Notes under the pieces: generated by a model
Databases searched by the model: none
What the model was told of the DNA's origin: nothing
Seen by the model: the letters and a program-made list of their open reading frames with translations, nothing else
Assembly: GCA_019115305.1 (NCBI GenBank)
Contig: DXDW01000102.1
Coordinates: 1-32,255 of the forward strand
Reading direction: 5' to 3'
Origin: Candidatus Anaerofilum excrementigallinarum
GTDB lineage: Bacteria; Bacillota; Clostridia; Oscillospirales; Ruminococcaceae
Length of the DNA: 32,255 nt
In this document: piece by piece, positions 8,197 through 25,126 of the stretch
Numbering within the stretch: the stretch's first letter is position 1
Layout: each line of letters starts with the position of its first letter
Translations under genes and position numbers: made by a program

Positions 8197-8826
8197 TTAC
8201 AGCACCGTGCTGCTGAAGCCCACGGCTTTGCCCAGAATGCGGATCTCGTCCAGTTCGCTGCCTGCATACTCAAACACCGGGTAGGAGGGGTTTTCCGGAC
8301 GCAGTTGCAGACGGCCGGGGATTTTGTACACCCGTTTGAGGGTGGCTTCCTCGCCGATCAGCACTGCGGCTATTTCGCCGTCTTCCACATCGGGCTGGCT
8401 GCGGATATACACCACGTCCCCATCCCGGATGCGGGCGCCGATCATGCTGTCCCCCTTGCAGCGCAGGGCAAAATCCGCGTGGATGAATTCGGGCACCGGG
8501 ATCTGATCCTCGATGTTTTCCTGGGCCAGAATGGGCTCGCCGCAGGCAATGGTGCCCAGCAGGGGAATGGGATAGGTGCTGGGCAGGGGCATGCAGCCCG
8601 CCGGCAAAGCACTGGGGGCCGATTGCCAGCCCAGCAAATACTCGGGCGAGCAGTCGAACAGCTCCGCCAGGGCCGCGATGGTCTCTTTTTTGATGTTTTT
8701 GATGGCTCCGCTCTCGTACCGCTGGACGGTGGCCTCCCGCACCCCCAGCTGCCGGGCTACGTCCAGCAAGGTGAGTCCCTTCTGCTGGCGAAGCTGGCGA
8801 ATCCGTGCACCGGTGGAGTTTTCCAT
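8197..8826 (-). CDS. Phage repressor: XRE helix-turn-helix plus S24 autocleaving domain
   Basis: A 209-residue LexA/CI-type repressor. Residues 5-60 form an XRE helix-turn-helix (L-L-D-V-A-R-Q-L-G-V-R-E-A-T-V-Q-R-Y-E). A linker leads to an S24 peptidase domain. The likely self-cleavage site is Cys95-Gly96 in I-A-C-G-E. The catalytic Ser is S127 in G-D-S-M and the Lys is K164 in A-T-L-K-R. All are intact, so RecA-stimulated autocleavage after DNA damage is expected to relieve repression of the rightward genes. A good ribosome site (GGGAGGACAC) precedes the ATG. Transcription starts from a leftward promoter facing the rightward promoter, as in a lysis-lysogeny switch. Confidence 0.92.
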   Translation of the reverse strand: MENSTGARIRQLRQQKGLTLLDVARQLGVREATVQRYESGAIKNIKKETIAALAELFDCSPEYLLGWQSAPSALPAGCMPLPSTYPIPLLGTIACGEPILAQENIEDQIPVPEFIHADFALRCKGDSMIGARIRDGDVVYIRSQPDVEDGEIAAVLIGEEATLKRVYKIPGRLQLRPENPSYPVFEYAGSELDEIRILGKAVGFSSTVL

Positions 8827-8869
8827 GGCTGTGTCCTCCCTGTATCCAATACATTTTGTCTGTGTTTTC

Positions 8870-8898
8870 AGTATACCAGAAAATTACGTAAAATGCAA
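8870..8898 (-). promoter_or_regulatory. Leftward promoter of the repressor gene
   Basis: On the minus strand, TTGCAT (8893-8898), a 17-base spacer and TATACT (8870-8875), 44 bases upstream of the ATG. The -35 hexamer lies about 30 bases from the -35 of the rightward promoter. Confidence 0.7.
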
Positions 8899-8928
8899 GA
8901 ATGGAAAGGATATTTTTCATTTTAGGTA

Positions 8929-8967
8929 TTTACATTGTGCGAAAGCAATGGTATAATGATTTTCGCA
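8929..8967 (+). promoter_or_regulatory. Rightward phage promoter with overlapping operator candidates
   Basis: TTTACA (8929-8934), a 17-base spacer and perfect TATAAT (8952-8957). Two inverted repeats overlap it: TGCGAAA (8938-8944) with TTTCGCA (8961-8967), bracketing the -10; and CATTG (8933-8937) with CAATG (8946-8950) inside the spacer. Either could be the operator of the adjacent repressor. Confidence 0.75.
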
Positions 8968-9038
8968 AAAGGTAAGAAGTTTCGGAAAATTCTCTTGAAA
9001 CATACGTTTTAAGAAAACTGAGAAAGGAGAAGAGGACT

Positions 9039-9257
9039 GTGAAACTTACGCACCAGCAGGCCCGGCAGGCTTTGGAAATGCGGCAGCGGCGGTGGACTCT
9101 GGCACAGATCGCCAAAGTGCTGGGCACGACCGAAAAGGAAGTGGCCGCTGCGATAAACCGGCAGCGCCGACGGCAGGAAAAGCTGTGCTGCCATTGTCCA
9201 TGGCGCAAGGATGGGCTGGAAATTTGCTGTCTGCCCCGGTGTTACCGGGTGAGATGA
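9039..9257 (+). CDS. Small HTH protein with cysteine cluster (early phage gene)
   Basis: A 72-residue basic protein. A helix-turn-helix-like stretch (about residues 20-42, W-T-L-A-Q-I-A-K-V-L-G-T-T-E-K-E-V) is followed by a Cys/His cluster (C-C-H-C, then C-C and C, about 50-68) that could bind zinc. It starts with GTG, nine bases after AAAGGAG. It is the first gene transcribed from the repressor-controlled promoter, in the position where Cro-like or early activators lie. I do not recognise a named family. It is followed 19 bases later by the sigma-like gene. Confidence 0.75.
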   Translation: MKLTHQQARQALEMRQRRWTLAQIAKVLGTTEKEVAAAINRQRRRQEKLCCHCPWRKDGLEICCLPRCYRVR

Positions 9258-9276
9258 CCATGAAAGGAGCGGGTAT

Positions 9277-9693
9277 ATGACAAAACAGGAAAAGGTGGAA
9301 TGGCTGCAGCGGTACCGGCTGAGCCTTATGCGGGAAAAACAGCTGCTGGAGGAGTGCGCCATGATGCGCAGCCGGATGACGGCCCTGTCACAGAGCCTGG
9401 GGCAGCCCCGGGTGCAGGGGGGAAAACGGGAGGACCGGACAGCCCGAGTGCTGGAACGGCTGGAGCAGCTGGAGGCAAAGCTGACGGCTGAGGCGGAAAG
9501 GGAACTGGAGCTTCGGGGGCAGATCGAACAGGCCATTGCTTCCGTGGAGGATGAACGGCTGCAGCTGCTGCTGCGGATGCACTATTTCAGCGGAAAAAGC
9601 TGGGACGCCATCGCTGACGTGATGCAGCTGGACGAGCGGTGGCTGCGCCGTCTGCACACCCGGGCGCTGGAGCAGCTGCGGCCGGGCAGCTGA
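9277..9693 (+). CDS. Phage sigma-like late transcription regulator (DUF1492/ArpU-type)
   Basis: A 138-residue protein. The first two thirds are a charged, Glu/Arg/Leu-rich coiled coil (about 1-90). The C-terminus (about 92-135) resembles sigma factor region 4: R-M-H-Y-F-S-G-K-S-W-D-A-I-A, a turn, then D-E-R-W-L-R-R-L-H-T-R-A-L-E. Proteins of this layout at the end of early regions in Firmicutes phages control late or packaging genes. The gene directly precedes the terminase leader, which has a good -10 without a -35. That suggests, but does not prove, that this protein activates the structural operon. Its start is close behind AAAGGAG. Confidence 0.75.
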   Translation: MTKQEKVEWLQRYRLSLMREKQLLEECAMMRSRMTALSQSLGQPRVQGGKREDRTARVLERLEQLEAKLTAEAERELELRGQIEQAIASVEDERLQLLLRMHYFSGKSWDAIADVMQLDERWLRRLHTRALEQLRPGS

Positions 9694-9736
9694 AAAAATC
9701 TGCGGCCAGACCCTAAAAAGCCCGCTTGAAAGCTGC

Positions 9737-9742
9737 TATACT
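9737..9742 (+). promoter_or_regulatory. Candidate activator-dependent late promoter (-10 only)
   Basis: TATACT followed by GATA, identical in that 10-base block to the rmuC promoter. The position 17 bases upstream (TAAAAA) is not a -35 match. It lies between the sigma-like gene and the terminase small subunit, where a late promoter needing an activator would be expected. Confidence 0.45.
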
Positions 9743-9867: not shown

Positions 9868-9887
9868 TGGAAAAAAGGAGGGAGAGA

Positions 9888-10349
9888 ATGAAACCCAAGC
9901 GCCAAGACTGGCAGACCCCCCAAGGGCTGGCGCTGCTGCGGGGCTGGGCCCGGGAGGATCTGCCCATGGAGGAGATTGCCCGGCGGTGCGGCGTCAGCCG
10001 GCGGGTGCTGGATGGCTGGCGGCGGCAGTCGGAGGAGATCGACCAAGCTCTGGACCAGAGCCGGGAACTGGCCGACCGGGTGATGGAGGATGCCCTCTAC
10101 CAGCGGGCCACCGGCTACACCACCACGGTGGAAAAGCAGGTGAAATGCAAGCAGGTGGACTATGACCCCGACACCGGCAAAAAGCTGCGGGAATGGGAGG
10201 AAATGCGGCCGGTGCAGGAGCAGGTGCATGTGCCGGGCAACATGACCGCCCTGCAGTTCTGGCTGAAAAACCGCAAGCCAGACTGCTGGCAGCAGAGCCC
10301 CGCCGCCGAGCCTGCCGGCGAGGAAGTGGAGATTCTGGACGATGTCTGA
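9888..10349 (+). CDS. terS: Terminase small subunit
   Basis: A 153-residue DNA-binding packaging protein. Residues 5-50 hold a helix-turn-helix (M-E-E-I-A-R-R-C-G-V-S-R-R-V-L-D-G-W), then a helical oligomerisation segment (about 50-75). The A-L-Y-Q-R-A-T-G-Y-T segment and the late M-T-A-L-Q-F-W-L-K-N-R motif are typical of Firmicutes phage small terminases. The ATG at 9888 was chosen because AAAAGGAGGGAG lies just upstream. Its last eight bases overlap the large terminase start, so the subunits are translationally coupled. It recognises the DNA to be packaged; whether this one is phage-specific cannot be seen. Confidence 0.88.
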   Translation: MKPKRQDWQTPQGLALLRGWAREDLPMEEIARRCGVSRRVLDGWRRQSEEIDQALDQSRELADRVMEDALYQRATGYTTTVEKQVKCKQVDYDPDTGKKLREWEEMRPVQEQVHVPGNMTALQFWLKNRKPDCWQQSPAAEPAGEEVEILDDV

Positions 10350-11601
10350 CAAGCGGCAGATCCGCCTGGCCGGGCTTATGGCCCCGGCCTTCTGGCCGGT
10401 GCACCGGCAGGTGAAAGAGGGCGCAGTGCGGGAACTGGTACTCCAGGGAGGCCGGGGCAGCTGCAAAAGCAGCTACGCCAGCCTGGAACTGGTGCTCTGG
10501 CTGCTGGCCCATCCCCGGTGCCACGGGGCGGCTCTGCGCAAGGTGGGACGCACCTTGCGGGGCAGCGTCTACACCCAGCTGTGCTGGGCGGTGGATATGC
10601 TGGGGCTGGCCGGGCGGTTTTCCCGCACCACCAGCCCTATGGAGCTCACCTACCTGCCCACGGGGCAAAAGATCCTCTGTCTGGGCATGGACGACGCCGG
10701 CAAGCTGAAAAGCCTGAAACCTCCCTTCGGCTATATCGGGGCGGTGTGGTTTGAGGAACTGGACCAGTTCGACGGCCCCGGCCAGGTGCGCAGCGCGGAA
10801 CAGTCGCTGCTGCGGGGCGGCGAGGAATTTCTCACCATCAAAAGTTTCAATCCCCCGGCTTCGGCCCGCAGCTGGGCCAACCGGTATGCCCTGGAGAGCC
10901 GGGAGGGCAAGCTGGTGCATCACTCGGACTACCGCTCGGTGCCCCCGGAATGGCTGGGACCCCGGTTTTTGGCCGACGCCGAGCATCTGCGGGCTGTGGA
11001 CCCCACTGCTTATCGCCACGAATATCTGGGCGAAGCGGTGGGCAGCGGCACACAGGTGTTCACCAATCTGCGGCTGGAGCCCATCCCGGCTGATGTGCGG
11101 GCAGGTTTTGAACGGCTGCTCCACGGGGTGGACTGGGGCTGGTATCCCGATCCCTGGGCCTACAACGGATGCAGCTACGACGCCGCCCGGCGCATCCTCT
11201 ATATCTACGACGAGGCCACCCGGCATCGGGCCTCCAACGCCGAGACGGCGGCGCTGCTGCTGGAAAAAGGGGTCTGTGCCGACCCGGAACGGGAGGAATG
11301 GCTCACCGCCGACTCCGCCGAGGAAAAAAGCTGCGGCGACTACCGGGCGGCGGGACTGCCCTGCCGCCGGGCGGAAAAGGGCCCCGGCAGCGTGCGGGCA
11401 GGCATGAAATGGCTGCAAAGCCTGGCCTGTATCTGGATCGACCCCGCCGCCTGCCCCGACACCGCCCGGGAATTTGGAGAATACGAGTACCAGCGGGACA
11501 AATCCGGCCAGATTCTGGAAGGATACCCGGATGAAAACAACCATCACATCGACGCGGTGCGGTATGCCACCAACCGCATCTGGAAACGGAGGGGAAGCTG
11601 A
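10342..11601 (+). CDS. terL: Terminase large subunit (packaging ATPase and nuclease, PBSX/T4-type)
   Basis: A 419-residue motor protein that drives DNA into proheads. Walker A is G-G-R-G-S-C-K-S-S (about 36-44). Walker B with catalytic Glu is I-G-A-V-W-F-E-E (about 132-139), and I-K-S-F-N-P-P follows as the coupling region. The C-terminal RNase H-like nuclease keeps its acidic residues: D264 in G-V-D-W-G, D325 in T-A-D-S-A-E-E and D404 in H-I-D-A-V-R-Y. Nothing is truncated, so the enzyme should be active. The length is usual for the PBSX-type large terminases of Firmicutes. It overlaps terS by eight bases and is followed immediately by a small coiled-coil gene. Confidence 0.95.
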   Translation: MSDKRQIRLAGLMAPAFWPVHRQVKEGAVRELVLQGGRGSCKSSYASLELVLWLLAHPRCHGAALRKVGRTLRGSVYTQLCWAVDMLGLAGRFSRTTSPMELTYLPTGQKILCLGMDDAGKLKSLKPPFGYIGAVWFEELDQFDGPGQVRSAEQSLLRGGEEFLTIKSFNPPASARSWANRYALESREGKLVHHSDYRSVPPEWLGPRFLADAEHLRAVDPTAYRHEYLGEAVGSGTQVFTNLRLEPIPADVRAGFERLLHGVDWGWYPDPWAYNGCSYDAARRILYIYDEATRHRASNAETAALLLEKGVCADPEREEWLTADSAEEKSCGDYRAAGLPCRRAEKGPGSVRAGMKWLQSLACIWIDPAACPDTAREFGEYEYQRDKSGQILEGYPDENNHHIDAVRYATNRIWKRRGS

Positions 11602-11802
11602 ATGGAGCATCTTGCGCGCTGGCTGCGCGGCTGGGTCCCGGAATGGGCCCGGCGGCAGCTGGAGGAAGAAAACCGGCGCCTGCGGCAGAAGATCGATCGG
11701 CTGCAGCGGGAAAACGACCGGCTCAACACCTATCTGGACGGCCTGGAGGCCGGTCTGCGGGCGGCCCGGAGCCTGGGGCGAAAGGCGGGTGAGGAGGAAT
11801 GA
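11602..11802 (+). CDS. Small coiled-coil protein between terminase and portal
   Basis: A 66-residue protein that starts directly after the terL stop and overlaps the portal start (ATGA). An amphipathic Trp/Arg-rich N-terminus (residues 1-16) precedes a strong coiled coil (about 18-55) with Leu/Ile spacing near seven and many Glu/Arg pairs. I do not recognise a family. Its position and tight coupling suggest a structural or packaging accessory, perhaps bridging motor and portal, but that is inference. Confidence 0.7.
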   Translation: MEHLARWLRGWVPEWARRQLEEENRRLRQKIDRLQRENDRLNTYLDGLEAGLRAARSLGRKAGEEE

Positions 11803-13124
11803 GCGGATACGGCGTGTGGGGGCTGGAACAGGCCTTCCCCGGCCGGCGGGACTGCACCACCCCCGCCATGCAGCGGGCGGTGGCCGACTGGTTCGGGCTG
11901 TATTTTGACGACCAGATCACCCTCGAGGAGGACCCCTGCCAGCGGCTGCCGGTGGTGGTGGTCTCCAAATTGCAGCGAGCCTGTTTTGCCGAGTACCGGG
12001 CCATCTGCGGCGAGGAACTCGGCCGCGGGGTGCTGCGGGGGCTGGAAGAGGTGCGCAGCAAGGCCATGCAGCTGGCCCTCATCGGCGGGGAATGCTGGCT
12101 GCGGCCGGCGCTGACGCCGGGAGAAATCAGTTTTACGGTGCTGCGGCGGGACGCCGTGGCGGTGCTGGCCCGGGACAGCCGGGGCCGGGCTGTGGAGCTG
12201 GTCAGCGGCGAGGAATTCCGCCGGGGCAAAGAGAAATACACGTTGCTGGAGCGCCGCTGCCAGACCGGCCAGGGCACTTTGGTGGAAAACCGCCTGTTCT
12301 GCAGCCGGGGCGGGGGACTGGGCATGCCGGTTCCTCTGGACCGTCTGCCCCAGTACGCGGCTCTGCAGCCCCGGCTTTTGCTGGAAGGGGTGGAGCAGCT
12401 GGGACTGGTAAACCTGCGGCTGCCTTTGGAAAACTGCGTGGACGGCAGTCCCGACCCGGTGAGCGTCTACGCCGCCGCGGCGGGGCTGATCCACAACATC
12501 AACCGCAACGAGCGGCAGCTTTGCCGGGAATTTGAAAACGGCCAGAGCCGTGTGTTTGCGGCGGCGGATCTGCTCTATCGCCGCCCCGGCGGGCGGCAGG
12601 TACTGCCGGCGGGGCTGTTTGTGGGGCTGGACGACGACCCCTCCGCCACCGGCATCACCATCTTTTCCCCGGCTCTGCGTCAGCAGAGCTTTCTGGAGCG
12701 AAAGCGGGAATACCTGCGGAATCTGGAAAGCCTCATCGGCCTCAAGCGGGGGCTGCTGGGGGAGGTGGAGGCCGCCCAGCGCACCGCCACCGAGGTCACC
12801 AGCAGCCAGGGGGATTACGCTCTCACCATCCGGGACCTGCAGCTGGTGTGGCAGCAGGCCGCCGGGCAGGCCCTGGCCCTTTGCCGGAAGCTGGCGGGGC
12901 TGTACGGTCTGCCCACCGGGGCGGGGGAGCTGGTCATCGACTGGGGCAACGGGGTGCTGTTCGACCGGGAAAAGGCCTTTGCCGAGACCCTCACATTGGT
13001 GGAGAACGGCATGCTGCGGCCCGAGATCGCCCTGGCCTGGCGGTACGGCCTGCCCTGGGAGACAGAGCAGGATCTGGCGGCAGTGCGACAAAAATATATG
13101 CCGGTTTCGGCCGGCGGCCAGTGA
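11799..13124 (+). CDS. Portal protein (SPP1 gp6-like)
   Basis: A 441-residue head vertex protein. Clues are its place straight after terL, the typical length, and a C-terminal E-V-T-S-S-Q-G-D-Y segment after a long helix (S-L-I-G-L-K-R-G-L-L-G-E-V-E, about 309-322), as in portals of SPP1/PBSX-type phages. The central region contains L-I-H-N-I-N-R-N and F-V-G-L-D-D-D-P. The dodecamer would form the DNA channel and the docking site for terminase and connector. It is translationally coupled to the coiled-coil gene. No separate MuF-type minor head gene follows, although SPP1-type phages usually have one. Confidence 0.9.
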   Translation: MSGYGVWGLEQAFPGRRDCTTPAMQRAVADWFGLYFDDQITLEEDPCQRLPVVVVSKLQRACFAEYRAICGEELGRGVLRGLEEVRSKAMQLALIGGECWLRPALTPGEISFTVLRRDAVAVLARDSRGRAVELVSGEEFRRGKEKYTLLERRCQTGQGTLVENRLFCSRGGGLGMPVPLDRLPQYAALQPRLLLEGVEQLGLVNLRLPLENCVDGSPDPVSVYAAAAGLIHNINRNERQLCREFENGQSRVFAAADLLYRRPGGRQVLPAGLFVGLDDDPSATGITIFSPALRQQSFLERKREYLRNLESLIGLKRGLLGEVEAAQRTATEVTSSQGDYALTIRDLQLVWQQAAGQALALCRKLAGLYGLPTGAGELVIDWGNGVLFDREKAFAETLTLVENGMLRPEIALAWRYGLPWETEQDLAAVRQKYMPVSAGGQ

Positions 13125-13257: not shown

Positions 13258-13758
13258 ATGTTGGATTGGCTTAAGGAGATTCTGGGGGAGGGATATACCC
13301 CGGAAATCGACCAGAAGATCAGCGCCGCCATCGGCCGCAGCTTTGTGGCCAAGGCCGATTTCGACGCGAAAAACAACGAGGCAAAGCAGCTGAAAGGCCG
13401 TCTGGAACAGGCGGACCAGACCATCGCCCGGTGGGAGCAGGTGGACGTGGACGGACTGCGCCGCCAGGTGGAGGAATACCGCCGCCAGGCCGAAAACGCC
13501 CGGTTCGACGCCCGGCTGGATCTGGCCATCGTCCGGGCGGGAGGACGCAGCGAAAAGGCGGTGCGGGCTCTGCTGGACCTGGACGCCTTGCAGGCCAGCC
13601 AGGACCCCGACCGGGAGATTGGCCGGGCACTGGAACAGCTGCGGGCCGAAAGCGGCTATCTCTTTGCACCGGCTCTGCCGGCTTTTGCCGCCGGGGCGGG
13701 GACCATGGCTCCGGCGGGTTGTGCCGATCCCCTGCGGGCGGCCTTCGGGCTGGAATGA
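13258..13758 (+). CDS. Capsid scaffolding protein (GP20-like)
   Basis: A 166-residue helical, highly charged protein between portal and major capsid genes. The N-terminus L-D-W-L-K-E-I-L-G, the long coiled coil (about 40-85) and a following A-R-F-D-A-R-L-D-L-A-I segment with G-G-R-S-E-K-A-V-R-A-L-L match the GP20/minor structural scaffold family of Firmicutes siphophages. The Ala/Pro-rich C-terminus would contact the capsid protein. AAAGGAG precedes the ATG. No protease gene is visible, so scaffold exit without cleavage is likely. Confidence 0.88.
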   Translation: MLDWLKEILGEGYTPEIDQKISAAIGRSFVAKADFDAKNNEAKQLKGRLEQADQTIARWEQVDVDGLRRQVEEYRRQAENARFDARLDLAIVRAGGRSEKAVRALLDLDALQASQDPDREIGRALEQLRAESGYLFAPALPAFAAGAGTMAPAGCADPLRAAFGLE

Positions 13759-14698: not shown

Positions 14699-15070
14699 AT
14701 GGACCTAAATTATCAGTTTTACCAGGCAGAGTACCAGGGGGACGAGATCTCCCAGGAGGATTTCGCCCCTCTGGCCGCCCGGGCCGGCCATTGGCTGGAC
14801 TGGCTGGGCCGTCAGTGCCGGGTGAGCGCTCCTGCGGGGGCTGACCCGGAGCGCAGCCGGGCCCTGGCTGTCTGCGCCGTGGCCGAGCAGCTGAACCGCC
14901 GGCGGCAGGCCGAGAGTGGCGAGCTGTGGGAGACCGTGAGCGTGGGCAGCGTCAGCACCAGCCGCAGCGCCCAGCTGCCCGCCGCCACCGCCGGCCAGTG
15001 GAACACCGCCCTGGCCCGGACGGCGGGGCAGTATCTGGACATCTGCCGGGCAGCGGAGGTGATGGTATGA
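14699..15070 (+). CDS. Head-tail connector protein (gp6-like)
   Basis: A 123-residue mostly helical protein just after the capsid gene, the usual place of the connector that docks under the portal. It opens with an acidic, aromatic segment (Y-Q-F-Y-Q-A-E-Y-Q-G-D-E-I) and D-F-A-P-L-A-A-R-A. A helix with A-V-C-A-V-A-E-Q-L-N-R-R and a loop V-S-V-G-S-V-S-T-S-R-S follow, a pattern shared by gp6-type connectors. The stop overlaps the next start (ATGA at 15067). Assignment rests on order and pattern. Confidence 0.75.
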   Translation: MDLNYQFYQAEYQGDEISQEDFAPLAARAGHWLDWLGRQCRVSAPAGADPERSRALAVCAVAEQLNRRRQAESGELWETVSVGSVSTSRSAQLPAATAGQWNTALARTAGQYLDICRAAEVMV

Positions 15071-15525
15071 GAGGGCCGGACTATCGCCTGTGCGACCAGA
15101 CGGTGACGGTGTACCACGGCATCTTCGGCGCCGACGGCAGCTTTTGCTGCGAGCGCCGGGTGCTGCAAGGGGTACATTTTGACTATACACGGGACCGGGC
15201 GGTGGATGTGAGCGGCAGCAGTCCCGAAACCGGTTTTCTGCTGGTGGCCCCCTGCCGCAGCCCTCTGCCGGCCTGGTGCGAACCCCTGGCCTTCGACGGC
15301 CTGGAAAACCGAACCGGCCGGTATACCTTGGCCCCGGGGGACAAGATTTTGCCGGGGGTGGGGCCGGAGATATCCACCCGGGCCCAGTGGGCCGCCCTGA
15401 CCAACCGCACAGCGGACGGGCTGGCGGTGGTGAAGTATGTGGACGCCAAATGGTGGCAGGGGCATTTGTGTCATGTGGAGGCGGGCGGATACCGCAGCGA
15501 CGCCCCCCGCCGCCGCCGAGATTGA
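15067..15525 (+). CDS. Head-completion / minor capsid protein (DUF6751-like)
   Basis: A 152-residue beta-rich protein. The start was set at the ATG overlapping the connector stop, although the frame is open further upstream. It begins D-Y-R-L-C-D-Q-T-V-T-V-Y, with a later L-L-V-A-P and L-A-P-G-D-K-I-L-P-G segment, as in small head-tail interface proteins of Firmicutes prophages. Probably the stopper or head-closure ring between connector and tail tube. The C-terminus is strongly basic (R-R-R-R). No separate tail-terminator gene is seen, so this gene may cover more than one joining role. Confidence 0.7.
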   Translation: MRGPDYRLCDQTVTVYHGIFGADGSFCCERRVLQGVHFDYTRDRAVDVSGSSPETGFLLVAPCRSPLPAWCEPLAFDGLENRTGRYTLAPGDKILPGVGPEISTRAQWAALTNRTADGLAVVKYVDAKWWQGHLCHVEAGGYRSDAPRRRRD

Positions 15526-18133: not shown

Positions 18134-18517
18134 ATGGCATGGATCGAAACCGCCGGCGGCATCGCCCTGCCGGCGCCCCAGATGGGCAGCGGAGGCTTTA
18201 CCATCTCCACGCTGGTGGACGGCGGGCGCAACGCCGCCGGCAACTTCATCGGCAGCGTGGTAGGGGAGGACAAGCTGAAGATCGAGATGGACTTCGGCGT
18301 GCTGGAGCCCGACCAGCTGGCCCGGCTGCTGGCCGTCTTTGACCGCAGCCAGGGCGGGCAGTTCGTCAACCGGTTCCGGGTATACGACCCCCGGCGGCAG
18401 GATTTTGTCTGGATGGATATGTATGTGGGGGACCGCACCGGGCGGCCGCTGCGGGTGGGGGCAAATTTTGTGCCCCTGGCCTGGGCCGACGTGAAGGCCA
18501 ACCTCATCCAGGTATAA
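18134..18517 (+). CDS. Small tail-tip protein (DUF6711/distal tail-like)
   Basis: A 127-residue beta-rich protein with G-S-G-G-F-T-I-S-T-L-V-D-G-G-R-N and F-R-V-Y-D-P-R motifs. It lies between tape measure and the large tail-tip gene. Small proteins of this type take the place of the distal tail hub in many Firmicutes prophages. A clear AGAGGAGG site precedes the ATG. The exact family (DUF6711 or a reduced Dit) is uncertain. Confidence 0.75.
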   Translation: MAWIETAGGIALPAPQMGSGGFTISTLVDGGRNAAGNFIGSVVGEDKLKIEMDFGVLEPDQLARLLAVFDRSQGGQFVNRFRVYDPRRQDFVWMDMYVGDRTGRPLRVGANFVPLAWADVKANLIQV

Positions 18518-18530: not shown

Positions 18531-20744
18531 GTGTATCTGGTATCAGACAGCTACAGCGAAGCCATGCGCCAGCCCATTCGGCAATGTGAAACGGGGGCGC
18601 GGGTGTATATCGGCGTCTTTGACACCACCGCCCTGGACGACGGATATCTTCTGCCCGCGTCCGGGGTTTTTTATTCCAGCCTGGAGCCGGTGCTGCAGGG
18701 GGGCGCCAAAGGGGAATATGCCACCTTTGAGCCGGGCTTTTTCCGGCTGGACGGTTCCCAGATCCTGCTGCCCGGGGAGACGGCGGCGCTGCAGACCCAG
18801 GGCTGGATCAGCGAGAGCGTATCCGGGGCGGATGGCGCGTTCCCGGCGGGCACCGGACTCACGGTCATGTTCGGCTCTGCCCACGATCTGCCGGGCCTCA
18901 CGGTGACCTTCGGGCAGCTGGAAGAGGATATCCCCGGCCGGCTGCGGGTGTCGGGCTGGCGGGATGGGCAGCGGATCGCGCAGCAGGAATACACCGCCGC
19001 CGACCTGCAGCCCACCAGCCGCCTGGAACTGGCCATGGAGCAGGTCAACGAGGTGCGGCTGGAGGCGCTGGCCAGCCAGAATCCCGCCGGCCGGGCGCGG
19101 GTGGCCCGGGTGGAGTTTGGCCTGGGCTATTCCTTTTCTCATAAGGAGATCCTGCGCATCACCGAAAAACACGAGGAAAGCCCGGTCTCTCTCAGCCTTC
19201 CCACCGGCAGCCTGTCCTTTGTGCTGGACAACAGCGACGGACGTTTTGATGTAGACCGAAAGGATTCCCTGGTGAATTTCCTGCGCCAGGGCAACCAGGT
19301 GGAGGTGGAATACCTGGTAACGGCGGCAGGCAGCCAGCAGCGCATCCCCTCCCGGGGCTGGAAGCTGTCCAGCTGGAACGCCAAAGGGGTGGAAGCCACC
19401 TTCGAAGCCAAGGATGCCCTGGCGGCCCTGGGAGATACCCAATATGAAAAGGGGCAGTTTCACCCCGAACAGTACGGGATCGGGCAGACGGCCCGGGAAG
19501 TTCTGGAGGACGCGGGAGCGCAGGCATACCAGGTGGACAGCCTGCTGGGCGATATGCAGCTGCCGGTGCCGGTGGTATCCCACGCCCAGGCGCTGCAGCT
19601 GCTGGCCAACCTGGCCAGGGCGCGGCTGTATGTGAACCGGGAAGGGAGCATTGTGCTGGCCCGGACCAATCCCGGCTCTGACTTTCAGGCCGGGGCGGAT
19701 ACAGGGCAGCTCACCGCCTATTCCGATCCGAACTATCTGGACCTGGACTGTGTGGAGGCTGCCACCTTTGAACCGGGATTTTTCCGGCTGGACCGCCGGC
19801 AGCATCTGCTGCCTAAAACGGAGTATACCGGCCGCAACGGCATCGCTACCGCGGCTCAGGCTGGAGAAGACGGATGGTTTGCCAGTCCGCCCGAAGTGTA
19901 TTTCACCGCCAGGGAACACAGCAATGTCTGGGCCCTGACACTGGATTTCGGCAGCCAGCCGGCTGCCCGCATCGGGATCAGCACCCAGGAAAACCAGCAG
20001 TGGAGCGAGGAGCGGGTCTTTGCCATCCAGTCCGGCCGCATGACCCTTCGGCTGCAGGCCCAGCACGTTTCCGGTATCCGGCTGCGCTTTCTGCAGGCCC
20101 GGCAGCAGGGACAGCGGGGACACCTGATAGGCTTTTCGGTGGACACCGATATGGCTTTCTCTTTGGACCAGGACCAGATCTACCAGGACAGCACCGCGTC
20201 GCTGGAGCCCCGGCTGCAGTGTGTTACGGCCCTGTGCACCGATCCGGTGGTGACGGCCGAGACCGAGCAGCTGGCCAGCCTGGACTTCAACACAGCGTCG
20301 GGCACGGTCAGCGTGAGCCACCGGCTGGGCTACCAGGTGGAAGCGGTGGTGGAGCCTTCTGTCTACCAGGTGCAGCTGACAAGCTGGGCTTACCGCTCCA
20401 AAATCACCGGCCGCACCGGCACCAGCCACCAGCTGAAGGTGACTCTGCAGGGCAAAAAGGTGAACCTGAACCAGATCTCCCTGACCAGTCCCGCTGCAAA
20501 AGACGGCGAGGTGCTGGAACTGGACAACCCCCTGCTGGATATTGGCTCCGGCCAGCAAGTGCTGAACTGGGTCCAGGACTATTACAGCCGCCGGGCGGTG
20601 CGCCGGCTGCATATCCGTGGTTTCCCCGAGATCGACTGCGGGGATACGGTGGAATATCTGAACGGCAAGCGGGGGCTGGTGACTGCCACCCAGCTGACCT
20701 ACAACGGCGCCTTTGACCAGGTGCTTACGGTGAGAGGAGAGTGA
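18531..20744 (+). CDS. Large tail-tip / baseplate protein (Tal-like) with repeated modules
   Basis: A 737-residue protein starting at GTG behind AAGGGGG. Two related stretches, each opening T-F-E-P-G-F-F-R-L-D (about residues 65 and 412), each introduce a beta-sandwich-like region of about 130 residues resembling carbohydrate-binding folds. The regions between and after (S-L-P-T-G-S-L-S-F-V-L-D-N near 220 and the C-terminal G-D-T-V-E-Y-L-N-G-K-R-G) resemble hub domains of siphophage tail-tip proteins. It probably forms the tip and touches the cell-surface glycan. No peptidase motif is seen. Intact, no decay. Confidence 0.8.
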   Translation: MYLVSDSYSEAMRQPIRQCETGARVYIGVFDTTALDDGYLLPASGVFYSSLEPVLQGGAKGEYATFEPGFFRLDGSQILLPGETAALQTQGWISESVSGADGAFPAGTGLTVMFGSAHDLPGLTVTFGQLEEDIPGRLRVSGWRDGQRIAQQEYTAADLQPTSRLELAMEQVNEVRLEALASQNPAGRARVARVEFGLGYSFSHKEILRITEKHEESPVSLSLPTGSLSFVLDNSDGRFDVDRKDSLVNFLRQGNQVEVEYLVTAAGSQQRIPSRGWKLSSWNAKGVEATFEAKDALAALGDTQYEKGQFHPEQYGIGQTAREVLEDAGAQAYQVDSLLGDMQLPVPVVSHAQALQLLANLARARLYVNREGSIVLARTNPGSDFQAGADTGQLTAYSDPNYLDLDCVEAATFEPGFFRLDRRQHLLPKTEYTGRNGIATAAQAGEDGWFASPPEVYFTAREHSNVWALTLDFGSQPAARIGISTQENQQWSEERVFAIQSGRMTLRLQAQHVSGIRLRFLQARQQGQRGHLIGFSVDTDMAFSLDQDQIYQDSTASLEPRLQCVTALCTDPVVTAETEQLASLDFNTASGTVSVSHRLGYQVEAVVEPSVYQVQLTSWAYRSKITGRTGTSHQLKVTLQGKKVNLNQISLTSPAAKDGEVLELDNPLLDIGSGQQVLNWVQDYYSRRAVRRLHIRGFPEIDCGDTVEYLNGKRGLVTATQLTYNGAFDQVLTVRGE

Positions 20745-20747
20745 AGC

Positions 20748-21173
20748 ATGAAATGGCAGACACCCAAGACCGACTGGCAGATCCGGTATGACGAAAACGG
20801 CCGCTATGCAGGGGACTATTTCGAGGCGGAAGACTACCAGCGTATTGCCGGCAACATCGAATATCTGCGGCAAATGGCGCGGGAGCTGTATACCCTTGTT
20901 CCGCTGCCGGCGCTGCCGCAGATCACAACGGCCAGTTTTGCCTATGCAGAGGACATGAACGCCCTGGAAAAGGGACTGGAGGATCTGCTGCAGGCCAGCT
21001 TTCTGCCTCCCGGCACACCGCCTTTTTCGGTTTGGCAGGGCAACGCGCCGGGCCCGGGGCCGGAGGATCTGAACCGATTGGAGAATATATGCGCTGTGAC
21101 CCGGGAAAATCTCGCAGCGCAGGCGCAGGCCCGCCAAAGGCTGGCAATCACATTGGGAGGTGTACAGTTTTGA
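20748..21173 (+). CDS. Baseplate-associated protein, unknown family
   Basis: A 141-residue protein starting M-K-W-Q-T-P-K-T-D-W. The first 45 residues are acidic and aromatic (R-Y-D-E-N-G-R-Y-A-G-D-Y-F) and lead into helices with Asn-Leu and Glu-rich repeats. Proteins that begin this way occur directly after tail-tip genes in Firmicutes prophages, but I know of no assigned function. It starts three bases after the tail-tip stop and overlaps the following TTG start, so it is coupled to both neighbours. Probably a tail-tip adaptor for the fibres. Confidence 0.7.
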   Translation: MKWQTPKTDWQIRYDENGRYAGDYFEAEDYQRIAGNIEYLRQMARELYTLVPLPALPQITTASFAYAEDMNALEKGLEDLLQASFLPPGTPPFSVWQGNAPGPGPEDLNRLENICAVTRENLAAQAQARQRLAITLGGVQF

Positions 21174-21787
21174 ACAGAGAATTTAAAGACCAGATCCCGC
21201 CGGAGGGCGGGCGAAAATATCGGATCACCGAAAACCCCGACGGCACATCCGGCATCAGCGACGTGACCGAATACCAGCAGGAGGGAACTCCCTTCGGCGC
21301 CAAAGAGGCCATGGAGCTGTACGACGGTATCGTCCCGCCCGGCGCGGTAATCCCCTACGCCGGCAGCAGCGCCCCGGATGGCTGGCTGCTCTGCGACGGG
21401 CGCACCGTGTCCCGCACCACCTATGCCGCCCTGTTCGCGGTGATCGGCACCACCTACGGCGCCGGGGACGGCAAAAACACCTTTGCGCTGCCGAATCTGC
21501 AGGGGCGGGTAGCAGCGGGCACAAGCAGCAGCCATCCGCTGGCCAGCAAAGCCGGCGCCGACAGCAAACAGATCACCCGCGCCAACCTGCCCGCCGAAAA
21601 GCTGAATCTGGAGGACAACGGCACCTGGATCGTGGACAGCGTCCAAACCGGCAGCGAATCCGGCAGGACGCTGCAGATGGGCACGCGGTCGGGCGCAGCG
21701 CGGCTGGAGACCAACACACTGGGCAGCGGCACCGCCTTCGATGTGCGCCAGGCCACCCTGTACCTGAACTACATCATCAAATACTGA
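21170..21787 (+). CDS. Tail fibre protein with phage collar domain (first copy)
   Basis: A 205-residue protein. I set the start at TTG 21170, with GGGAGG ten bases upstream and overlapping the previous stop. The frame is open further upstream, but that part lies inside the preceding gene. Residues 1-50 attach to the tail. The phage collar domain begins at P-P-G-A-V-I-P-Y-A-G-S (about residue 54) and includes D-G-W-L-L-C-D-G-R and I-G-T-T-Y-G. The C-terminus ends T-L-Y-L-N-Y-I-I-K-Y. It is closely related to the collar gene at 22970, up to near identity in DNA around D-G-W-L-L-C-D-G-R. Confidence 0.87.
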   Translation: MNREFKDQIPPEGGRKYRITENPDGTSGISDVTEYQQEGTPFGAKEAMELYDGIVPPGAVIPYAGSSAPDGWLLCDGRTVSRTTYAALFAVIGTTYGAGDGKNTFALPNLQGRVAAGTSSSHPLASKAGADSKQITRANLPAEKLNLEDNGTWIVDSVQTGSESGRTLQMGTRSGAARLETNTLGSGTAFDVRQATLYLNYIIKY

Positions 21788-21800: not shown

Positions 21801-22115
21801 ATGGATATACTCCAGATCTACCGCGGGGACACCCTGCGGCTCACCGTCACCCTCACCGACAGCGGGGGCGAACCCTTTGTGCCCGCCCAGGGCCAGCAGG
21901 TGGTGTTTTCGGTGGGCTGGCCGGGAGAGGTGCTGGTGGCGGTGCCGGTGATCGAGGGAGCCGCCAACCTCACCCACCAGGACACCGCCCGGCTGCTGCC
22001 GGCGGAATACTGCTTTGATGTGCGGGTCTACAACGCCGACAAAACTTTGGTGGCCACCCCCATCTTCGGCAAATTTGTGGTAAAGGAGGCGGTGAACGAT
22101 GCACTGCAATTGTGA
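21801..22115 (+). CDS. BppU-like baseplate/fibre protein
   Basis: A 104-residue beta-rich domain starting M-D-I-L-Q-I-Y-R-G-D-T-L-R-L-T-V-T-L-T-D. The R-G-D-T motif with alternating hydrophobics is typical of the N-terminal domain of upper baseplate proteins of lactococcal-type phages. It probably anchors fibres to the tip. The next gene starts within its last 17 bases, so they are coupled. Confidence 0.7.
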   Translation: MDILQIYRGDTLRLTVTLTDSGGEPFVPAQGQQVVFSVGWPGEVLVAVPVIEGAANLTHQDTARLLPAEYCFDVRVYNADKTLVATPIFGKFVVKEAVNDALQL

Positions 22116-22380
22116 AGTGCGGGGCAGCCTGGCCCTTGTGCCGGAGATCTCCGGCAGCCTGTCGTCTGACGCGGGGCTGTCCGGCACAGTGAACATCGCC
22201 CAGAGTGAGCCCTGGCCCGTTTATGAAGGCAGCTACACCGCCACCCCCAGCCCCGAGGCCCAGTCTTTGCCCACCGCCGGCCGGCGGATGGAGCAGGACG
22301 TCACGGTGGAGAAAATCCCCGTCTACATCACCGAAAATACCGCCCACGGCAACACTGTATACATCGGAGGGAATCTGTAA
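22099..22380 (+). CDS. Small fibre-associated protein of unknown function
   Basis: A 93-residue protein with AAAGGAGG upstream. It includes Y-E-G-S-Y-T-A-T-P-S-P-E-A-Q-S-L-P-T and K-I-P-V-Y, a segment shared by small Firmicutes prophage tail proteins near collar fibres. Three cysteines near the N-terminus (C-N-C) may bind metal or form disulfides. It ends immediately before the start of the next fibre gene. No function is known to me. Confidence 0.65.
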   Translation: MHCNCEVRGSLALVPEISGSLSSDAGLSGTVNIAQSEPWPVYEGSYTATPSPEAQSLPTAGRRMEQDVTVEKIPVYITENTAHGNTVYIGGNL

Positions 22381-22965
22381 ATGGCAACGAACAACAACAA
22401 GATCATCTATGGCGGCCAGGTGCTCATCGACCTCACCAGCGACACCGTCACCGCCGCCGGACTGGCCAAGGGGCTCACCGCCCACGACAAGAGCGGCGCC
22501 ACCATCACCGGCACCAACACCTTTGACGCCGACACCCAGGACGCCACCGCCGCGGCCGCCGAGCTGCTTACGGGCAAGACCGCCTATGTCCGGGGCAAAA
22601 AGGTCACCGGCACCATGCCGGATAACGACGCCGTGGCCGGGGAGATCTCCAGCAAAGACACCCCCTACACCGTGCCCCTGGGCTACCACGACGGCAGCGG
22701 CACCGTGACCATCGCCGCCGCCGAAAAGGCCAAGCTGGTGCCCGACAACATCCGCCAGGGCATCACCATCCTGGGGGTGGAGGGCGCCATGTCGGGCACC
22801 GAGGACGTGAAGGCCCAGGCCAAGACCGTCACCCCCAAAACCACCCAGCAGGTGATCACCCCCGATTCCGGCTACAATTACCTGTCCCAGGTGACGGTGG
22901 CCAAGATCCCGTACAGCACCAGCGAAAACTCCGCCGGCGGCCTCACCGTGACCATCGGAGGGTAA
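22381..22965 (+). CDS. Tail fibre protein with repeated small beta modules
   Basis: A 194-residue protein directly abutting the previous stop. Residues 6-45 (Y-G-G-Q-V-L-I-D-L-T and G-A-T-I-T-G-T) recur in altered form further on (L-L-T-G-K-T-A-Y-V-R-G-K-K-V-T-G-T) and at the start of the 22970 gene. The C-terminus (K-T-V-T-P-K-T-T-Q-Q-V-I-T-P-D-S-G-Y-N) is a common fibre repeat of Firmicutes prophages. The protein probably forms a slender fibre. Confidence 0.75.
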   Translation: MATNNNKIIYGGQVLIDLTSDTVTAAGLAKGLTAHDKSGATITGTNTFDADTQDATAAAAELLTGKTAYVRGKKVTGTMPDNDAVAGEISSKDTPYTVPLGYHDGSGTVTIAAAEKAKLVPDNIRQGITILGVEGAMSGTEDVKAQAKTVTPKTTQQVITPDSGYNYLSQVTVAKIPYSTSENSAGGLTVTIGG

Positions 22966-22969
22966 GGCC

Positions 22970-23560
22970 ATGGGCGTGAACAAAGTGCAGTATGGCAGCC
23001 AGGTGCTGCTGGATATCTCCGACGCCACCGTCACGCCCACCCAGCTGCTGAAGGGCGCCGTTGCCTATAACGCTGCCGGAGAAAGGATCGTGGGGACTTT
23101 GGATATGAACCTTTATGTGCCGCCCGGTATGGTGGTACCCTATGCGGGCAGCACGGCCCCGGATGGCTGGCTGCTCTGTGACGGGCGCACCCTGCAGAGC
23201 GACCGATACCCCGAACTGTATGCCGCCATCGGCACCACCTATGGCCAGAACAAGCCCGGCAGCTTCAAGCTGCCGGATCTGCGGGGCAATGTACCGGCAG
23301 GCGCCAGCACCGGCCATGACCTGGCCAGCAAGACCGGAGCCGAAAAAGTTACCATCGGAAAACAAAATCTGCCGTCTAACGGCGTGACCATTGCAATCCA
23401 ATCCACAAAAACGCAATCCGACAACCGCAATGCGGTTCCGGTGTCATGGACGAACCGCTATGAATTTAATGCCAATTCGCTGGCTGTTGGCGATGGAACC
23501 TATACCCCGCTGAACGTGATGCAGCCCACCCTGTATCTCAATTACATCATCAAATACTGA
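22970..23560 (+). CDS. Tail fibre with collar domain (second, chimeric copy)
   Basis: A 196-residue protein. Residues 1-45 (Y-G-S-Q-V-L-L-D-I-S, then G-E-R-I-V-G-T) match the start of the 22381 protein. The rest matches the 21170 collar protein (P-Y-A-G-S-T-A-P-D-G-W-L-L-C-D-G-R and final T-L-Y-L-N-Y-I-I-K-Y). The gene looks like a fusion of the two neighbours. Bases 23341-23520 are only about 49 percent GC by hand count, well below the rest, and encode the variable tip, which suggests recent exchange. The GGAGGG ribosome site is in the previous stop region. Confidence 0.85.
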   Translation: MGVNKVQYGSQVLLDISDATVTPTQLLKGAVAYNAAGERIVGTLDMNLYVPPGMVVPYAGSTAPDGWLLCDGRTLQSDRYPELYAAIGTTYGQNKPGSFKLPDLRGNVPAGASTGHDLASKTGAEKVTIGKQNLPSNGVTIAIQSTKTQSDNRNAVPVSWTNRYEFNANSLAVGDGTYTPLNVMQPTLYLNYIIKY

Positions 23561-23576
23561 AAAAGGAGCAAATCGT

Positions 23577-24455
23577 ATGAAGATCCTGGACGTATCGGAA
23601 CACCAGCCCAACATCGACTACGCCGCCGCAGCCAAAGAGGTGGACGGCGTGATCCTGCGCTGCGGCGTCACCCACTGGGGCACCGCCAACGAGTGTGTGG
23701 CCGACGAATGCTTTGAGCGGCACTACGCCGGTTTTGCGGCCCAGAAGGTGCCCATGGGCGCCTACTACTATTCTGCCGCCGACTGCGAGGCGAAAGTGGA
23801 CGAGGAAATCCAGCGCTGCCAGCAGCTGCTGGCGGGCAAAACCTTTGCCCTGCCCATCTACATCGATATTGAGAACCCCCAGCGCATGGAACCTTTGAGT
23901 GCGGACAAGCTCACCGCTCAGGTGGAGCGCTGGTGCAGCGCCATGGAGGCCGCGGGCTATTTTGTAGGCGTCTACGCCAACACCGACTATTTCACCCGCA
24001 AGCTGCACCATGCCCAGCTGGCGGATAAATACACCATCTGGCTGGCGGATTACCGGGCCCAGCCCAACACCAGCCTGCGCCGGGACCTGCACCAGTACAC
24101 CAGCACCGCCCAGATGGCGGGCATCGCCGGCGGCGTGGATATGAGCAACCTGGTGCGGGCGGACCTTATGGAGGCCGTCACCGGCAGCGGCCGCAACGGC
24201 ACCACCGGCCCCAGCGCTCCCAATCCTCCCGCCGACCACAACCTGTATACCGTGGTCTTCGGCCCCGCCACCGCCGGCGACCGGGACGCCGCCGTGGCCC
24301 TGGGCAATGGCCTGCTGCTGGAGCCCCAGGTCCGGGAGGTGGGCTATGCAGCGGGAGGCCAGCAGCTGTATATGGTGTCCTTCAAGCCCATGACCGGCGG
24401 GGATAAGGCGGCCATCTGCCAGCTTGGTCAGCGGCTTTCGGTGCAGACGGTGTAA
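23577..24455 (+). CDS. Endolysin, GH25 muramidase
   Basis: A 292-residue cell-wall hydrolase. The GH25 domain (about residues 1-200) shows the first Asp in I-L-D-V-S-E-H-Q, the catalytic pair in Y-I-D-I-E, V-G-V-Y-A-N and I-W-L-A-D-Y, all intact. After a Pro/Gly linker (about 202-220), a C-terminal SPOR-like or small wall-binding region ends the protein. There is no signal peptide, so release depends on the holin downstream. A strong AAAAAGGAG site precedes the ATG. It cuts the MurNAc-GlcNAc bond of peptidoglycan. Confidence 0.92.
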   Translation: MKILDVSEHQPNIDYAAAAKEVDGVILRCGVTHWGTANECVADECFERHYAGFAAQKVPMGAYYYSAADCEAKVDEEIQRCQQLLAGKTFALPIYIDIENPQRMEPLSADKLTAQVERWCSAMEAAGYFVGVYANTDYFTRKLHHAQLADKYTIWLADYRAQPNTSLRRDLHQYTSTAQMAGIAGGVDMSNLVRADLMEAVTGSGRNGTTGPSAPNPPADHNLYTVVFGPATAGDRDAAVALGNGLLLEPQVREVGYAAGGQQLYMVSFKPMTGGDKAAICQLGQRLSVQTV

Positions 24456-24469
24456 GAAGGGGGCAGAGA

Positions 24470-24778
24470 ATGGAGCTTTTGTTTACAGCCCTGCCCTCGC
24501 TGTTTTCCGCGGCTGTCATGGGGGCTCTGGGCTTTCTGGCAGGGCAGCTGCGCCGGGCCAAAAAAGAGGATGCGGCGGTGAAAAACGGGGTCAAGTGCCT
24601 GCTGCGGCTGAAAATCATCGATCTGTGCAGCCACTATGCCGGGCAGGACACCATTCCGCCCTACGGCCTGGAAAATATCCTCACCGTGTACATGGCTTAT
24701 ACCGATTGCGGTGATGGCGACCCCTCGGTGGGGCATATGGTGGAACAGCTGAAGAAAAAATGCGTCTGCAGCCGGTAA
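24470..24778 (+). CDS. Small membrane-anchored phage protein near the lysis genes
   Basis: A 102-residue protein with one N-terminal transmembrane helix (about 4-25), a basic stretch (Arg/Lys) and a helical cytoplasmic part (K-N-G-V-K-C-L-L-R-L-K-I-I-D) with a Y-G-L-E-N segment and cysteines at the end. Proteins of this pattern recur next to holins in Firmicutes prophages. A role as holin partner or antiholin is possible but unproven. Confidence 0.7.
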   Translation: MELLFTALPSLFSAAVMGALGFLAGQLRRAKKEDAAVKNGVKCLLRLKIIDLCSHYAGQDTIPPYGLENILTVYMAYTDCGDGDPSVGHMVEQLKKKCVCSR

Positions 24779-24808
24779 AAGGGGCAGACCTTTCAGAAGG
24801 AGGAAACT

Positions 24809-25126
24809 ATGGATCAGATTCTGGAACAATACCTGGTGGAATACCTGCAGCCCGAAATGGCCCTGCTGGTGCCGGTGCTGCTGGCTCTGGGCTGGGTGAT
24901 CAAGCACAAAACCCAGTGGCCCAACACCGACATTCCCTGGCTGCTCAGTCTGGGCGGCATTTTGCTGGCCAGCCTGCATCTGCTGGGCACTACCACCATT
25001 GTGGACTGGCAAAGCCTGCTGCGGCTGCTGTTTGCCGGCATCACCCAGGGGGTGCTGGCGGCGGCCATCGCCACTTTGGCCTATCAGATCTACCGGCAGA
25101 ACCAGAAAAAGAATACCGTATCCTGA
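24809..25126 (+). CDS. Holin (Phage_holin_5-like)
   Basis: A 105-residue protein with AGAAGGAGG upstream. The start (L-E-Q-Y-L-V-E-Y-L-Q-P-E-M) and three hydrophobic segments (about 16-34, 44-62 and 70-92), followed by a basic tail (Y-R-Q-N-Q-K-K-N), match small Firmicutes phage holins. It would pore the membrane at the end of the cycle and free the GH25 lysin. It is the last gene of the phage block and runs into a strong terminator. Confidence 0.85.
   Translation: MDQILEQYLVEYLQPEMALLVPVLLALGWVIKHKTQWPNTDIPWLLSLGGILLASLHLLGTTTIVDWQSLLRLLFAGITQGVLAAAIATLAYQIYRQNQKKNTVS

What the first reader, a model, noticed from the sequence alone, without database searches (positions are those of the whole stretch)
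8197..25126. Compact phage-like particle locus without integrase or replication genes (PBSX/GTA-like candidate)
Seen: one rightward block with complete packaging, head, tail, fibre and lysis genes behind an S24 repressor, with intact terminase active sites. No integrase, excisionase, replication or recognisable antirepressor gene, no att repeats, GC like the host. Known: PBSX in Bacillus and RcGTA-type elements are compact, immobile, chromosomally controlled and package host DNA. Inference: this locus may be a damage-inducible particle producer retained by the host, not a mobile phage. A decayed prophage is the main alternative.
Basis: partly seen in the sequence, partly recalled or inferred. 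Interest (0 to 1): 0.7.

Follow-up and report, generated by a model that had tools for sequence, protein, structure and literature searches.

The report
Domesticated phage-particle locus in Anaerofilum
A bacterium grouped with the genus Anaerofilum carries a compact block of phage genes for packaging DNA, building heads and tails and bursting the cell, with no recognisable gene for integrating or copying itself, and its relatives in two sister species suggest that the host lineage has likely kept it as a damage-triggered particle maker, not as a mobile virus.

Summary
In detail: an S24 repressor, then terminase, head, tail, fibre and lysis genes in one intact block (8197-25126), with no recombinase on the contig and no att repeat between the junctions. 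Three of the four genomes of this genus that I saw carry the compact form. The three are one clade for portal and capsid (TerL weaker) and match each host's GC3 (element/host 0.81/0.83, 0.54/0.54, 0.43/0.43). In G002 the locus lacks the repressor but keeps two operator-like sites whose only other exact copy in that genome lies before an orphan chromosomal S24 repressor: predicted control in trans. The fourth genome keeps only the regulator cassette. Against domestication in place: surroundings differ between species; the window's tRNA-Thr/metal-operon setting is not conserved; between G000 and its sisters the element diverges more than host genes. A related locus in another genus (capsid named Allofournierella) sits at one place in three of four species, under purifying selection. 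Best reading: a PBSX/GTA-like siphovirus particle locus of a new lineage; packaging of host DNA is untested. Nearest published case: FpGTA of Faecalibacterium, podovirus-like. New variant of a known kind.

The parts
8197..8826 (-). S24 (LexA/CI-type) repressor with HTH; Ser127, Lys164 and a Cys-Gly cleavage-like site (IACGEP)
   Evidence: Pfam HTH_3 + Peptidase_S24, phrog_4, LexA/UmuD chains, 71% to the G003 copy with these residues conserved; their catalytic roles recalled
8827..9038 (.). divergent control region; GGTATTTACATTGTRCGAAAG shared with the G001 regulator cassette; sigma-70-like TTTACA-17-TATAAT read by eye
   Evidence: sequences printed
9039..9257 (+). small HTH protein
   Evidence: weak phrog_664; 36% homologue in the G001 cassette
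9277..9693 (+). sigma-region-4-like regulator (phrog_36, DUF1492-like)
   Evidence: 40% homologue in the G001 cassette
9885..10349 (+). TerS (start at 9885 chosen; frame open from 9822), HTH-like N terminus
   Evidence: phrog_309; HTH hits below Pfam cut-offs
10342..11601 (+). TerL, ATPase and nuclease domains
11602..11802 (+). small protein between TerL and portal
   Evidence: phrog_3671; kept in relatives
11799..13124 (+). portal
   Evidence: phrog_533
13258..13758 (+). scaffold
   Evidence: phrog_194, PF06810
13809..14678 (+). major capsid protein
   Evidence: phrog_422
14699..15070 (+). head-tail adaptor
   Evidence: phrog_541
15067..15525 (+). second neck protein (name by position)
   Evidence: phrog_3366, weak, unknown function
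15543..15992 (+). major tail protein
   Evidence: phrog_820; 85% and 81% in G003 and G002
16062..16364 (+). tail assembly protein 1 (name by position)
   Evidence: phrog_8300, unknown function
16450..16740 (+). tail assembly protein 2 (name by position)
   Evidence: phrog_8355, unknown function
16724..18115 (+). short tape measure (463 aa)
   Evidence: phrog_1535 and others
18134..18517 (+). distal-tail-like protein (name by position)
   Evidence: phrog_1194, unknown function; 74% in G002 and G003
18531..20744 (+). baseplate/tip protein (name by position)
   Evidence: phrog_13879, unknown function
20748..21173 (+). tail-end protein, unknown
   Evidence: phrog_18725
21164..21787 (+). tail collar/fibre protein
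   Evidence: phrog_9116
21801..22965 (+). three proteins of the fibre region (21801-22115, 22099-22380, 22381-22965); the last is 84% to a G001 prophage
22970..23560 (+). second collar/fibre protein
   Evidence: phrog_9116
23577..24455 (+). GH25 endolysin
   Evidence: PF01183, phrog_291
24470..24778 (+). protein between lysin and holin, unknown
   Evidence: phrog_4105
24809..25126 (+). holin
   Evidence: PF16079, phrog_1129
7732..7807 (-). tRNA-Thr(tgt), 5' end towards the locus (neighbour, not part)

Best explanation
This is likely a domesticated siphovirus locus, PBSX/GTA-like in the way it works, which the Anaerofilum lineage keeps as a damage-triggered maker of DNA-filled particles. Shown: an intact block for packaging, head, tail and lysis, with no integrase, replication gene or att repeat found, in three species, as one clade for portal and capsid, with host-like GC3. 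Inferred: DNA damage makes the S24 repressor cut itself (in species G002 a chromosomal S24 repressor would do this in trans); the divergent promoter then fires; TerS/TerL fill heads; since the locus seems unable to excise or copy itself, most packaged DNA would be host DNA; holin and GH25 lysin free the particles. Whether the DNA is delivered to other cells (GTA) or the particle only kills (as PBSX) is left open.
For: No recombinase on the window's contig; none in the reading frames of the two sister loci (by eye; ten of their proteins by Pfam; no tblastn hit of the G001 and G013 integrases to the three contigs). No att repeat at the three compact loci: 10, 11 and 12 bases at the ends, each at its shuffled 95% level, against 51 in the control. 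Same compact layout in G003:C24 and G002:C148, 17 homologues each; both records are titled Anaerofilum. One clade: portal 95/91, capsid 100/99; TerL only 79/97. GC3 medians element/host 0.81/0.83, 0.54/0.54, 0.43/0.43. Control: the prophage across the tRNA-Leu in G003 has GC 0.583, the compact locus 0.442, five host loci 0.417-0.453. G001 keeps the repressor (71%), HTH (36%) and regulator (40%) before a GMP-synthase gene, without the structural genes in the 18 kb looked at. G002: TTGCRTTTAYGCAA occurs exactly 3 times in the genome, 2 before the element's TerS, 1 at 37 bases before the likely start of an orphan S24 repressor; G003's single exact copy lies before that repressor's orthologue. Related locus in genus g25: same place beside pflB-pflA in G027, G185 and G352; dN/dS of structural genes 0.02-0.36 for G027-G352 and G027-G185.
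Against: The surroundings of the three compact loci differ; G002 and G003 share only the tRNA-Leu side. Between G000 and the other two, element proteins are more divergent than host proteins (medians 56 against 71% and 54 against 69%, p about 0.03 each; equal between G002 and G003), so strict co-descent is not shown. Window TerL is closer to fragments of G001 prophages (80-86% over 209-243 residues) than to its compact sisters (66-67%), and these fragments were too short for the TerL tree; one fibre gene is 84% to a G001 prophage: exchange with other phages. The scaffold tree held only the window of the three and put it with G027:C4. TerS keeps an HTH-like end, unlike FpGTA's. Short tape measures and loss of the minor head gene also occur in other loci. 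dN/dS in the g25 locus is mostly higher than in its flanking genes, and 0.18-0.76 for G027-G427. No particle, DNA or expression data.
Confidence: 0.55

Rival explanations
1. A still mobile, Anaerofilum-restricted phage lineage that lost its own integrase and moves with a recombinase supplied by another element or by homologous recombination.
For: Different chromosomal surroundings in G000 and in G002/G003; mosaic with prophages of G001 and G013, the latter with an integrase; two of the three abut tRNA-Leu(gag), beside which G013 has an integrase, the third lies near tRNA-Thr(tgt), an att site in G001.
Against: No att repeat, recombinase or replication gene found in any of the three; the tRNA 5' end, not the 3' end, faces the element; GC3 equal to host down to 0.43; neighbours of host genes are poorly conserved in this genus too, so place alone says little.
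Confidence: 0.2
2. Three prophages decaying independently after deletion of their early regions.
For: Different pieces are missing: G002 lacks the repressor, G003 lacks HTH and regulator, G001 lacks the structural genes.
Against: One clade for portal and capsid; 26 open frames in the window and no broken gene seen among 17 homologues in each sister; third codon positions carry most changes, as in host genes; operator-like sites kept in G002 without a repressor.
Confidence: 0.1
3. A helper-dependent element: early functions come from another resident prophage, such as the one on contig C183 of the same genome.
For: The own genome has a second prophage with a 71% identical TerL and early-type genes (by eye).
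Against: Its portal is distant (26%); the compact locus encodes its own TerL, capsid and tail, unlike most satellites (recalled).
Confidence: 0.1

Closest known systems
FpGTA of Faecalibacterium (PMC12946183, Nat Commun 2026)
   Same: Neighbouring Clostridia; [quoted passage not shown] TerS, TerL, portal, scaffold, capsid; holin and endolysin (abstract, passages, sections 9 and 26 seen)
   Different: FpGTA is most likely podovirus-like, split over two operons (10.5 and 5.5 kb), TerS without obvious DNA-binding domain, and its particles hold about 9 kb DNA. Here one siphovirus-type block, own S24 repressor, HTH-like TerS, no experiment. Sequence homology between the two was not tested.
PBSX of Bacillus subtilis
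   Same: Mitomycin-induced defective prophage that packages 13-kb pieces of host DNA (PMC7667829, passages)
   Different: PBSX has a contractile tail and is larger (recalled); here a non-contractile tail set
RcGTA of Rhodobacter
   Same: Compact block of about 15 kb without integrase or replication (recalled)
   Different: Different tail and host control (CtrA/GafA, recalled) against an S24 repressor here; no comparison was run
Larger siphoviruses of the same group (G001:C37, a contig fragment; G013:C31)
   Same: Homologous TerL, portal, scaffold, capsid, neck
   Different: G001:C37 has a minor head gene, tail-completion gene and long tape measure; G013 has an integrase beside tRNA-Leu(gag)

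Membership tests
Gene transfer agent | Packages random host DNA, little or no own DNA | not testable with these tools
   needs particle sequencing
Gene transfer agent | No integration or replication genes | tested here: met
Gene transfer agent | Long-term vertical inheritance at a conserved place | tested here: inconclusive
   clade and GC3 fit; place not conserved in Anaerofilum; conserved for the related g25 locus in three of four species
Gene transfer agent | Chromosomal control in trans | tested here: inconclusive
   operator-like sites in G002 only, no binding data; the window locus has its own repressor
Gene transfer agent | TerS without DNA-binding domain | tested here: inconclusive
   HTH-like hits, below Pfam cut-offs
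PBSX-like defective prophage | Repressor, particle and lysis genes without recombinase or att repeat | tested here: met
PBSX-like defective prophage | Contractile tail | tested here: not met
   tape measure, tube and distal tail of siphovirus type, no sheath family among the hits
Autonomous temperate phage | Integrase and att sites | tested here: not met
Tailocin | Tail without head and terminase | tested here: not met
   head, portal and terminase present

The most novel reading that the evidence does not exclude
A new, siphovirus-type gene transfer agent lineage of Clostridia, arisen at least twice from one phage group (Anaerofilum and the genus named Allofournierella), in which control passed in one species from the locus's own repressor to a chromosomal damage-sensing repressor in trans.
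Probability: 0.35. Interest if true: 0.82.

Novelty: new variant of a known kind. Interest (0 to 1): 0.62.

Why it matters
A 2026 study reports GTA-like packaging of host DNA as common in gut Ruminococcaceae and Oscillospiraceae, but names a responsible locus only in Faecalibacterium. This locus and its relative beside pflB-pflA are concrete candidates in other genera, with an orphan-repressor control that can be tested directly. They show how a temperate siphovirus may be stripped down and taken over by its host.

Tried and rejected
Simple empty site at the window's place: the two flanking blocks are each collinear in G002 and G003, but in G003 they lie about 125 kb apart on one contig, so none can be shown. 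Integration at tRNA-Thr(tgt): a G001 prophage does use it (51-base repeat between two contigs), but there the 3' end faces the prophage; in the window the 5' end does. Loss of the minor head gene and a short tape measure as unique marks of the compact form: rejected; they recur in L117, L143 and L130 (tape measures 489-604 aa) and in g25 loci. Viral contigs: 50 TerL loci, none with the compact combination, but many are partial; 8 tube loci, the four opened have other heads. Genome contigs: 4 tube loci, two of them G002 and G003. Tube profile in the family: 25 of 396 genomes; only the three Anaerofilum loci score above 320 bits (next 228); of the other 22 genomes I opened eight new loci plus G027 and G352; 12 were not opened. 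Trees used hits covering at least 70% of the query at 40% identity or more (63 TerL, 29 portal, 16 capsid, 11 scaffold rows), so fragments were dropped; hits under 55% coverage were dropped, the tip protein among them. The capsid has no PDB relative by sequence. Recombinase lists were cut: G002's one PF00589 match, one of G003's three PF00239 matches and some of G027's are not placed, hence. The right ends of the g25 loci are unseen because contigs end there.
Full report
What is there. The window is one whole contig (C8, 32,255 bases) of a draft genome of 2.47 Mb, 83.7% complete. Its genus (g1) has three other genomes here, G001-G003; two of them, G002 and G003, match in contig length records titled uncultured Anaerofilum sp., hence the genus name. 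The block 8197-25126 holds a leftward S24 repressor and a rightward run from an HTH protein and a sigma-like regulator through TerS, TerL, portal, scaffold, capsid, neck, tail, fibre, GH25 lysin and holin. All 26 assigned frames are open. No tyrosine or serine recombinase lies on the contig, and the junctions share no repeat beyond chance.

The compact form recurs. A TerL search hit 36 of 120 genomes, own genome included. Most hits are other phage loci, but G003:C24 and G002:C148 have the same compact set, 17 homologues each: repressor (G003) or none (G002), then TerS to lysis, without early region. Sizes are 16.9 kb (window), 14.1 kb (G003) and 13.7 kb (G002). A tube-profile search of 396 family genomes gives these three above 320 bits and nothing else above 228. 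Trees join the three for portal (95/91) and capsid (100/99), and for TerL with weaker support (79/97); the TerL tree lacks the two G001 fragments, which are the window's nearest by identity; the scaffold tree held only the window and put it with G027:C4. For portal the sister is a fragment of a larger phage of G001, same genus. That fragment has a minor head protein (phrog_581), a second one (phrog_556), a tail-completion protein (phrog_3266) and a tape measure of at least 736 aa, all absent or shortened in the window (463 aa), G003 (419 aa) and G002 (450 aa). These reductions are not unique: L117, L143, L130 and the g25 loci share some.

Residence. GC3 medians of element and host agree in each species: 0.81 and 0.83, 0.54 and 0.54, 0.43 and 0.43 (from; 18, 14 and 16 element genes, 13, 14 and 14 host genes). 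In G003 the prophage across the tRNA-Leu has GC 0.583, the compact locus 0.442, five host loci 0.417-0.453. In G000 and G001 other prophages match the host too, so this control speaks only in G003. Protein identity between G002 and G003 is the same for element and host (medians 73 and 73.5%), but between G000 and these two the element is more divergent (56 and 54% against 71 and 69%). So GC points to long residence, while co-descent fits G002/G003 at most. Third codon positions differ far more than second ones in element genes as in host genes: selection on protein, which a live phage would also show.

Regulation. G001 has no compact block, but at C34 keeps a 71% identical repressor, divergent from homologues of the HTH (36%) and regulator (40%), directly before a GMP-synthase gene, and shares the promoter stretch GGTATTTACATTGTRCGAAAG with the window. 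G002 lacks the repressor, on a contig that runs on through tRNA-Leu, but keeps TTGCGTTTACGCAA and TTGCGTTTATGCAA before TerS. I took the motif from these two sites, then scanned other places. In the whole G002 genome (80% complete) the exact pattern TTGCRTTTAYGCAA has one more copy, 37 bases before the likely start of an orphan S24 repressor on C43 (start taken from its G003 orthologue; the mechanical frame runs 81 bases further); its neighbours are fatty-acid genes (by eye) and an AIM24 gene. In G003 the one exact copy lies before that repressor's orthologue. With up to one mismatch, sites against the reversed-pattern control are 9 and 3 in G002, 7 and 1 in G003, 7 and 3 in G001, 1 and 0 in G000. 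I read this as predicted control in trans; no binding was tested. The window's repressor scans as LexA/UmuD-like, with GDSM, the Lys of ATLKR and a Cys-Gly cleavage-like site (roles recalled), so damage-induced cleavage is inferred.

Place. The left flank (rmuC, deacetylase, DUF5685, DnaJ-like, membrane and beta-lactamase-fold genes) and the right flank (zntA, HMA, ArsR, one more gene) are each collinear in G002 and G003, so both are chromosomal. But they are not joined there, zntA is followed by other genes in G001, G002 and G003, and tRNA-Thr(tgt) lies next to a KsgA-like gene in G002 and G003 (named by eye). G002's locus lies between a YitT gene (with one small gene between) and tRNA-Leu(gag); the YitT place is free of the element in G003 and G000. 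G002 and G003 both abut tRNA-Leu(gag) on its 5' side. In G011, G015, G022 and G027 tRNA-Leu(gag) follows rmuC directly, and rmuC is the window's near neighbour; this may point to one ancestral rmuC/tRNA-Leu site, an inference only.

A related locus passes that test. In genus g25, whose capsid protein is named Allofournierella, Fournierella or Gemmiger sp. An87 by its sources, a locus with 66-68% TerL, 64% portal and 72-73% capsid begins 77 bases after pflB-pflA in G027, in the same order in G185 and G352, with repressor, regulator, terminase and head, no early region and no recombinase seen on that side (by eye). G427 of that genus has the locus at another place. dN/dS (NG86) of its genes is 0.02-0.39 for G027-G352 and G027-G185, against 0.04-0.26 for the flanking genes, and 0.18-0.76 for G027-G427; dS is 0.05-0.39 in the first two pairs, against 0.14-0.44 for the flanking genes. 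Its portal groups with integrase-bearing G013, not with the window, so a second, separate origin is likely. It holds two tail modules. The right ends are not assembled.

Known systems. Searches for gene transfer agent with Firmicutes/PBSX, Clostridia, Oscillospiraceae and Faecalibacterium (one search listed 15 of 95) and for Anaerofilum with prophage returned no report of this locus among their listings. The closest is FpGTA (PMC12946183; abstract, passages, sections 9 and 26 seen). PBSX facts come from passages of PMC7667829; passages of PMC10538166 were seen and not used; RcGTA facts are recalled.

Verdict. Works like a PBSX/GTA-type particle locus, with likely domestication; membership in the GTA class is not established because packaging was not tested.

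Noticed in passing
L045 10155 to L046 13113 (G027:C4), also L233, L235, L241: One head module followed by two tail modules (two tape-measure hits), with tandem reverse-strand SHOCT/bPH-type genes between them, at a conserved place beside pflB-pflA in three species.
   Followed up: partly
L046 1148-1866; L241 5778-6496: The tail-tube gene is split in two pieces about 280 bases apart in G027 and G352 but whole in G185 and G427.
   Followed up: no
L081 7645-7695 and L096 5812-5862 (G001): A tRNA-Thr(tgt) prophage of the congener, on two contigs, has a 51-base att repeat with a tyrosine recombinase beside one copy.
   Followed up: partly
window 7732-7807; L106 10473-10556: In the own genome the end of a KsgA-like gene (by eye) is followed by tRNA-Leu(gag), and tRNA-Thr(tgt) lies by the phage locus; in G002 and G003 the KsgA-like gene is followed by tRNA-Thr: the two tRNA genes seem to have exchanged neighbours.
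   Followed up: no
L032 (G000:C183): Second prophage in the own genome with a 71% identical TerL and a distant portal (26%).
   Followed up: partly
window 7892-8152 and 6647-7546: Two predicted membrane proteins beside the tRNA with no Pfam hit and no homologue in the flanks searched.
   Followed up: partly
L039 16100-20464 (G003): Another prophage with a reverse-transcriptase-like gene (by eye) sits on the 3' side of tRNA-Leu(gag), GC 0.58 in a host of 0.42-0.45.
   Followed up: no
L041 11938-13881 (G002); L039 2856-5114 (G003): The fibre genes of the two sister loci carry long collagen-like repeats, which the window's fibre genes lack by eye.
   Followed up: no
window 129-1961: A 610-aa protein with the beta-lactamase/serine-hydrolase fold (PF00144) in the left flank.
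   Followed up: no
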